Virus record (IMG/VR): IMGVR_UViG_3300029911_000104
Coordinates: 1-32,332 of that record
Source of the DNA: a virus
Length of the DNA: 32,332 bases
Direction: 5' to 3' (one strand)
Made by a program: the position numbers and the translations under genes. Below, piece by piece: positions 21,783-22,220 of this stretch. The notes under the pieces were generated by a model, which made no database searches, was not told where the DNA came from, and saw only the letters and a list, made by a program, of their open reading frames with translations. The first letter of the stretch is position 1; the number at the start of each line of letters is the position of its first letter.

Positions 21783-22220
21783 CAGCCAATCCCGAGAAGC
21801 GAACCATACTTCTCGCGCGAGCCATACCATGGGAGTGAACCATAATGGAGGTGCGAGCCAGCCCTGCTGAGTGAACCAAATTCGCTGCGCGAGCCATACC
21901 ATGGGAGTGAACCAAAGCATACGTGCTAGCCGTGGCACAGGAGAGAACCAAGGTGGATGCGCGAGCCATCCCATCGGAGCGAACCAAAGCATCAGCGCGA
22001 GCCATCATTAGGGAGCGAACCAAAGAGCGAGTGCGAGTCAGAAACATAGAGTGAACCAAAGCATCAGAGCTAGCCACCACCAGAGAGCGAACCAAAGGGC
22101 GAGTGCGAGTCATGCTTTCGGAGTGAACCAAAATGCCAGTACGAGCCACACTCCCGGAGTGAACCAAAGTCATGGCGCTAGCCGTGAAATCGGAGTGAAC
22201 CAAAAGTAACGCGCGACACT
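21783..22220 (+). repeat. 36-bp tandem array of alternating GAACCA and GAGCCA boxes
   Basis: GAACCA occurs at 21801, 21837, 21873, 21909, 21945, 21981, 22017, 22053, 22089, 22125, 22161 and 22197: twelve invariant boxes exactly 36 bp apart, with consensus GGAG(T/C)GAACCAAA. Midway between them, again exactly 18 bp off, lie thirteen related boxes (consensus G(C/T)GCGAGCCA; variants CAGCCA, TAGCCG, GAGTCA, TAGCCA, GACACT). About 7 variable bases separate the boxes. There is no indel in ~430 bp. Two 72-bp higher-order duplications are visible (21989-22060 with 22061-22132; 28 identical bp at 21815 and 21887). The 21740-22261 interval has no convincing gene. The function is unknown. Confidence 0.93.

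What the first reader, a model, noticed from the sequence alone, without database searches (positions are those of the whole stretch)
21783..22220. Strictly phased 36-bp array with two alternating box types behind its own promoter
Twelve invariant GAACCA hexamers are spaced exactly 36 bp apart, and a second, looser set of GAGCCA-like boxes lies exactly 18 bp between them, with ~7 variable bases in each gap. No indel has accumulated although the variable bases have diverged and 72-bp duplications show unequal exchange. The promoter at 21746-21774 would make an RNA that is nothing but repeats, without a ribosome site. It is not CRISPR-like, since the spacers are far too short. Possible roles: an RNA decoy or sponge for a host RNA-binding protein, iterons of a replication or partition system, or a packaging or recombination site.
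Basis: partly seen in the sequence, partly recalled or inferred. Interest (0 to 1): 0.88.

Follow-up and report, generated by a model that had tools for sequence, protein, structure and literature searches.

The report
Phage TIGR guide-RNA array, distant Tas
The strange repeat array is a set of twelve tiny paired guide sequences belonging to TIGR-Tas, an RNA-guided DNA-targeting system described in 2025, and its protein partner is encoded 20 kilobases away in the same phage contig under a look-alike promoter.

Summary
The array (21784-22216) is twelve 36-nt units without an indel: edge repeat, 8-nt spacer, loop repeat (GAACCA), 8-nt spacer. [quoted passage not shown] This is the anatomy of a TIGR array (Tandem Interspaced Guide RNA; Faure et al. 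2025, PMC12045711). The window also encodes the partner: the gene at 797-1783 scores 158 bits against NCBIfam NF052498 'TIGR_Tas_endo' (cut-off 100), and its predicted fold is closest to the TasH and TasR cryo-EM structures (Z 17.7-18.9). It carries no nuclease domain, so it is TasA-like.

Pattern scans brought in about 40 other viral contigs with the same kind of array (about 1,300 units). Of 38 contigs examined, 35 encode a Tas homologue, nearly always within a few hundred bases of an array. This window is the outlier: its only array is 20 kb from tas, inside the structural-gene cluster. The array and tas are preceded by the only two exact TTGACA-N17-TAAGTY sites in the window, so they are probably co-expressed. 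No guide matches its own contig (549 tested), so targets probably lie elsewhere. It is a new member of a known kind with an unusual layout.

The parts
21784..22216 (+). TIGR array: 12 units of 36 nt (edge repeat / spacer A 8 nt / loop repeat / spacer B 8 nt)
   Evidence: Unit parse; phase and composition; same array type in about 40 other viral contigs
21784..21788 (+). 5'-truncated edge repeat AGCCA that opens the array
   Evidence: Sequence; [quoted passage not shown]
22211..22216 (+). 3'-truncated edge repeat GCGCGA that closes the array
   Evidence: Sequence; same published rule; relatives end in GAGCGA in the same way
21746..21774 (+). Promoter-like site of the array, TTGACA-N17-TAAGTT; its end lies 9 bp before the truncated edge repeat
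   Evidence: one of only two exact TTGACA-N17-TAAGTY matches in the window
797..1783 (+). tas gene, 328 aa, solo Nop-domain (TasA-like) protein; coordinates include the stop codon
   Evidence: NCBIfam NF052498 158.7 bits against a cut-off of 100; Foldseek and VIA matches to TasH and TasR; Pfam Transposase_20. Start at ATG 797 chosen because the 680 start lies inside the promoter-like site
680..708 (+). Promoter-like site of tas, TTGACA-N17-TAAGTC, same architecture as the array's

Best explanation
The array is a TIGR array and is the guide-RNA half of a TIGR-TasA system whose protein half is the gene at 797-1783. Proposed working: both halves are switched on from look-alike promoters; the array is transcribed as one RNA beginning at about the first truncated edge repeat; a host RNase together with Tas cuts it within each edge repeat into twelve 36-nt tigRNAs; a Tas dimer holds one tigRNA, one protomer on the edge repeat and the other on the loop repeat; spacers A and B then pair with opposite strands of one 16-18-bp DNA site, which is opened and sharply bent. 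With no nuclease domain, this Tas would bind and block or bend its targets rather than cut them. Targets most likely lie outside the phage itself (host DNA or rival mobile elements). Shown here: array anatomy, Tas family and fold, linkage in relatives, paired promoter-like sites, no self-targets. Inferred from PMC12045711: processing, dimer geometry and targeting mode. Inferred only: the biological role.
For: Array anatomy fits point by point: two alternating ~10-nt repeats, two short spacers per 36-nt unit, both repeats ending in CCA (or CCG/TCA), and truncated edge repeats at both ends (rule). Spacer columns carry almost no information across 201 units from 47 sources. The window encodes a Tas protein: NF052498 158.7 bits against a cut-off of 100, while the IS110 model reaches 28 against 140; model pLDDT 89; top PDB matches are only TasH and TasR (Z 17.7-18.9), then ISCro4/IS621 (13.4, 13.3) and Nop5 (8.3). 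Of 38 array-bearing sources examined, 35 carry a Tas homologue, mostly within a few hundred bases of an array and on its strand, and all 25 aligned members match NF052498. The two closest Tas relatives (48-49% identity) have a dual-repeat array directly upstream of tas. The array and tas have the only two exact TTGACA-N17-TAAGTY sites in the window.
Against: Array and tas are 20 kb apart, whereas published loci and nearly all relatives here are adjacent. No rho-independent terminator was found after the array. Box D is GAG, GCG or GTG rather than the UG of TasR arrays, though the paper says this motif diverges. No RNA or binding data exist for this phage, and no natural target was found. The promoter motif was chosen after reading the two sites, so its exactness is partly circular.
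Confidence: 0.95

Rival explanations
1. DNA iterons: the array is a binding site in DNA for a replication or partition protein, held in phase by the protein lattice.
For: Strict phase and lack of coding potential are what iterons also show; Faure et al. report occasional TasA-ParB operons.
Against: Iterons do not usually alternate two repeat types with unconstrained spacers and truncated repeats at both ends; the array co-occurs with a Tas gene in 35 of 38 sources and is preceded by a promoter-like site so that a transcript would start at the first repeat. No parB, parA or replication initiator was recognised next to it.
Confidence: 0.02
2. RNA sponge or decoy for a host RNA-binding protein.
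For: A repeat-only transcript is predicted.
Against: A sponge needs one repeated site; here the variable 8-mers are highly diverse within arrays and guide pairs are unshared between contigs, as expected of guides. The likely binder is phage-encoded.
Confidence: 0.02
3. Decayed gene for a 6- or 12-residue repeat protein on either strand.
For: 18 bp is a whole number of codons and one minus-strand frame is open through the array. Pooled over relatives, minus-strand stops are somewhat depleted in two frames (118 against 140 and 104 against 148).
Against: The best + frame has two stops in the array. In relatives stops in the + frames are at chance level, every minus frame still has about one stop per 7 to 12 units, and +1 or -1 steps break any frame.
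Confidence: 0.01
4. TIGR array that no longer works with the Tas in this contig: an orphan or relic whose true partner is missing or lies outside the fragment. (A sub-case of the TIGR reading, not an alternative to it.)
For: 20-kb separation; edge repeats are more variable here (TAGCCG, GAGTCA) than in most relatives; the closest Tas relatives use 34-nt units with a GAACATCA loop.
Against: Phase is perfect over 24 half-units and all twelve loop repeats keep GAACCA; array and tas share a promoter form; only one Tas is in the record and no other array lies beside it; relatives with distal extra arrays exist (G002, G031, G035).
Confidence: 0.12

Closest known systems
TIGR-Tas dual-repeat arrays with solo-Nop TasA effectors (Faure et al. 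2025, PMC12045711)
   Same: 36-nt units; alternating edge and loop repeats ending in CCA; two short spacers; truncated edge repeats at both ends; Nop-domain Tas in the same contig; tailed-phage genome.
   Different: Array 20 kb from tas and inside the head-tail gene cluster; own promoter-like site; spacers 8 nt (16 nt in all, as in the TasH system) rather than 9; box D not UG; no terminator found.
TasH and TasR (TIGR effectors with an HNH or RuvC domain; PDB 9vzx, 9w04, 21kl, 9mty)
   Same: Fold of the Nop domain and coiled coil (Z 17.7-18.9).
   Different: No nuclease domain in the window protein; NCBIfam's label 'endonuclease' is not borne out here.
IS110/IS621 bridge-RNA recombinases
   Same: C-terminal Transposase_20/Nop-like fold (Pfam E 6.5e-5; Z 13.3).
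   Different: NCBIfam IS110 score far below its cut-off (28 against 140); no DEDD domain; a multi-unit array instead of a single two-loop RNA.
CRISPR arrays
   Same: Repeat-spacer array that serves as a store of guides.
   Different: Two alternating short repeats; 8-nt spacers in pairs; no Cas gene recognised in the window.

Membership tests
TIGR-Tas | Dual-repeat array: two distinct alternating 8-12-nt repeats separated by short (about 9-nt, down to 8-nt) variable spacers, unit about 36 nt | tested here: met
   definition
[quoted passage not shown]
   AGCCA at 21784-21788 and GCGCGA at 22211-22216
TIGR-Tas | Box C (CCA) at the end of both repeats | tested here: met
   All 12 loop repeats end in CCA; full edge repeats end in CCA, CCG or TCA
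TIGR-Tas | Box D (UG in TasR arrays; said to diverge but to covary between edge and loop) | tested here: inconclusive
   Repeats open with GAG, GCG, GTG or AAG, not a constant UG; some relatives (L099, L041, L189) do open with TG in both repeats
TIGR-Tas | Nop-domain Tas protein encoded by the same element | tested here: met
   797-1783: NF052498 158.7 bits, cut-off 100; fold matches to TasH and TasR
TIGR-Tas | Usual, not strictly defining: array directly next to tas | tested here: not met
   20 kb apart in the window; adjacent in nearly all relatives, with further distal arrays in G002, G031 and G035
TIGR-Tas | Usual, not strictly defining: rho-independent terminator after the array | tested here: not met
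   None reported near 22216; several relatives appear to have one on reading
TIGR-Tas | Processing to 36-nt tigRNAs and tandem-spacer DNA targeting | not testable with these tools
   Needs RNA sequencing and binding assays
TasA subtype (solo Nop) | No HNH or RuvC domain | tested here: met
   Only Transposase_20 (Pfam) and TIGR_Tas_endo/IS110 (NCBIfam) models match; helical model, nothing N-terminal beyond a short low-confidence tail
IS110 transposase | Full-length IS110 with N-terminal DEDD domain | tested here: not met
   27.9 bits against a curated cut-off of 140, C-terminal part only
CRISPR array | One repeat type of 25-36 nt with spacers of similar length | tested here: not met
   Two 10-nt repeats, 8-nt spacers

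The most novel reading that the evidence does not exclude
A trans-acting TIGR-TasA layout: the guide array is placed among late structural genes and the TasA gene elsewhere, tied together only by a shared promoter form, so that guides and effector are expressed as one regulon during infection to block or bend DNA of the host or of rival phages without cutting it. Distal extra arrays in other phages (for example about 60 kb from tas in G031) would be the same arrangement.
Probability: 0.35. Interest if true: 0.55.

Novelty: new member of a known kind. Interest (0 to 1): 0.4.

Why it matters
TIGR-Tas was described in 2025, and the natural targets, the role of nuclease-less TasA and the way arrays grow are open. 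The IMG/VR arrays read here (58 arrays of six or more units, about 1,300 repeat units) give a sample on which these can be tested: no self-targeting, guide pairs unshared between contigs, a mild excess of near-duplicate spacers at short range, and arrays that can sit far from their tas gene. The last point means that searches limited to a few kilobases around tas will miss arrays like this one.

Tried and rejected
Searching IMG/VR with the flanking neck protein and the major capsid protein: no relatives found. A loose GARCCA pattern: mostly other repeat sequences, many of them apparently low-complexity coding repeats, but four true arrays among them opened the case. Rfam: nothing within 21000-23000. 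tRNA or tmRNA: none. Coding on either strand: rejected. Self-targeting: spacer A followed by the reverse complement of spacer B, gap 0-2, for 549 tigRNAs against 1.5 Mb of their own contigs: 0 exact and 1 one-mismatch match, against 0 and 3 with mispaired spacers. Cross-targeting between these phages: 3 exact against 0-1 in four mispaired controls, too few to claim. That target geometry is my derivation from the 8-nt 3' overhang reported for TasR. Tas in 50,697 phage records by tblastn: no match. A second array beside tas in the window: none found. IMG/VR relatives of the 22-bp GCGGACACGACGGGCA-type motif: one hit, apparently inside an open reading frame.

Full report
Observation. The array is real and as described. 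Twelve GAACCA hexamers are 36 bp apart with looser GAGCCA-like boxes at the midpoint. Read as units, it runs from a truncated AGCCA (21784) to a truncated GCGCGA (ending 22216), with twelve repeats of [8 variable nt][GAGNGAACCA-like][8 variable nt][GNGCGAGCCA-like] in between and no indel. A step-18 chain score of 289 compares with at most 18.8 in shuffles.

The same array type elsewhere. Scans of IMG/VR with degenerate forms of the unit returned 45 stretches in one scan and 11 in another. Forty records, the window included, hold the spaced repeat pattern, with none matching the reversed control pattern. A chain detector found arrays of six to about eighty half-units; steps other than multiples of 18 are nearly all 17 or 19. 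Averaged over contigs, the two repeats are sharply conserved (GAGAGAACCA and GAGCGAGCCA) while the sixteen spacer columns carry 0.00 to 0.17 bits. Pooled stop codons in the three + frames match a shuffled expectation; two of the three minus frames are somewhat depleted (104 against 148, 118 against 140) but still hold about one stop per 11 to 12 units. With the single-base steps, this excludes a repeat protein as the general explanation. In the genome collection only one stretch was found, in a Planctomycetaceae metagenome bin.

The partner gene. Most arrays abut one gene whose stop codon often runs into the first truncated repeat. It encodes a ~270-aa protein containing GIGPVIxAGLLAHID and ending in a GHAH-like motif. 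The same family is in the window at 797-1783, 20 kb from the array. It matches NCBIfam NF052498 TIGR_Tas_endo at 158.7 bits (cut-off 100), and so do all 25 aligned relatives at E 0.001 or better. It matches solved TasR and TasH by sequence. Its AlphaFold model (pLDDT 89, pTM 0.85) has TasH and TasR as its best structural neighbours (Z 18.9 to 17.7), followed by IS621 (13.3) and archaeal Nop5 (8.3). No nuclease domain was detected, so by the published scheme it is TasA-like.

Comparison with what is known. Faure et al. (PMC12045711; [quoted passage not shown] spacers A and B pair with opposite strands of one target. The window meets every anatomical rule that could be tested, except a constant UG box D (which they say diverges), a terminator, and adjacency to tas.

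The unusual point. In 35 of 38 sources a Tas homologue is present, and nearly always an array lies within a few hundred bases of it. The window's only array is 20 kb downstream, between a gene of unknown function and the genes of the neck and tail. Additional distal arrays exist in other contigs (7.5 kb from tas in G002, about 60 kb in G031, several in G035). Both the array and tas in the window are preceded by TTGACA-N17-TAAGTY, and these are the only two exact matches in 32 kb. The array's copy ends 9 bp before the first truncated repeat, so a transcript would begin at the array's edge; an array about 2 kb from tas in G017 shows the same spacing (TTGAGG-17-TATACT, 8 bp). This suggests, without proving it, that array and effector are separately transcribed but co-regulated. 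The motif was formulated after seeing both sites.

Targets and growth. Using the geometry implied by the 8-nt 3' overhangs of TasR (my derivation), 549 tigRNAs were tested against their own contigs: no exact match and no excess at one to three mismatches over mispaired controls. No guide pair is shared between contigs. Near-identical spacers are slightly enriched one or two units apart (2.3-3.6% against about 0.5% between contigs), in line with the 72-bp duplications in the window. Arrays therefore seem to grow partly by duplication of blocks, but most spacers look independent.

Verdict. A TIGR array of a TIGR-TasA system in a contractile-tailed phage (tail sheath and tube genes): a known kind, with an uncommon split layout. 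What remains inferred is processing, DNA binding, and what the twelve guides aim at.

Noticed in passing
window 3927-3948 (+), 13299-13320 (-), 18687-18708 (+), 22231-22252 (+); shorter copies at 4969, 16712, 26701 (all -): A 22-bp element GCGGACACGACGGGCACTTTGA recurs in intergenic spots, none expected by chance; one copy follows the array by about 15 bp and forms a 27-bp perfect inverted pair with the copy at 13294. By eye, some copies precede TTGAC(A/C) or TACAGTTA sequences, so it may be an upstream promoter element.
   Followed up: partly
L267 5239-5965 and L268 5433-5886: The closest Tas relatives have dual-repeat arrays with a 34-nt unit whose loop repeat is GAACATCA instead of GAACCA, directly upstream of tas: a repeat variant with a different box C in one repeat.
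   Followed up: partly
G031 (L196, about 82.6-83.7 kb of the contig) against its tas at about 23.1 kb; G002 array at about 26.0 kb; G035 arrays at 39.7, 53.6 and 56.8 kb: Extra TIGR arrays far from tas, sometimes on the opposite strand, show that the window's split layout is not unique (coordinates on concatenated pieces).
   Followed up: partly
phrog_4285: PHROGs lists this family as 'transposase, integration and excision'; the window's Tas matches it at 3.1e-34, so some phage genes annotated as transposases may be Tas proteins.
   Followed up: no
arrays in L178, L184, L187, L197, L204, L159 (24-26 half-units) and L183, L192, L199, L203 (30): Array lengths seem to cluster near 25 and 30 half-units; not tested statistically, and L199 and L203 come from related phages.
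   Followed up: no
window 2075-3121 and 1-115: Pentapeptide-repeat protein gene, with a further 15/30-bp repeat stretch of similar type at the contig start.
   Followed up: no
window 13852-17043: A 1063-aa protein joins a head maturation protease region (residues 74-234) to a region around residues 558-670 that matches phage families including one named SAM-dependent methyltransferase.
   Followed up: no
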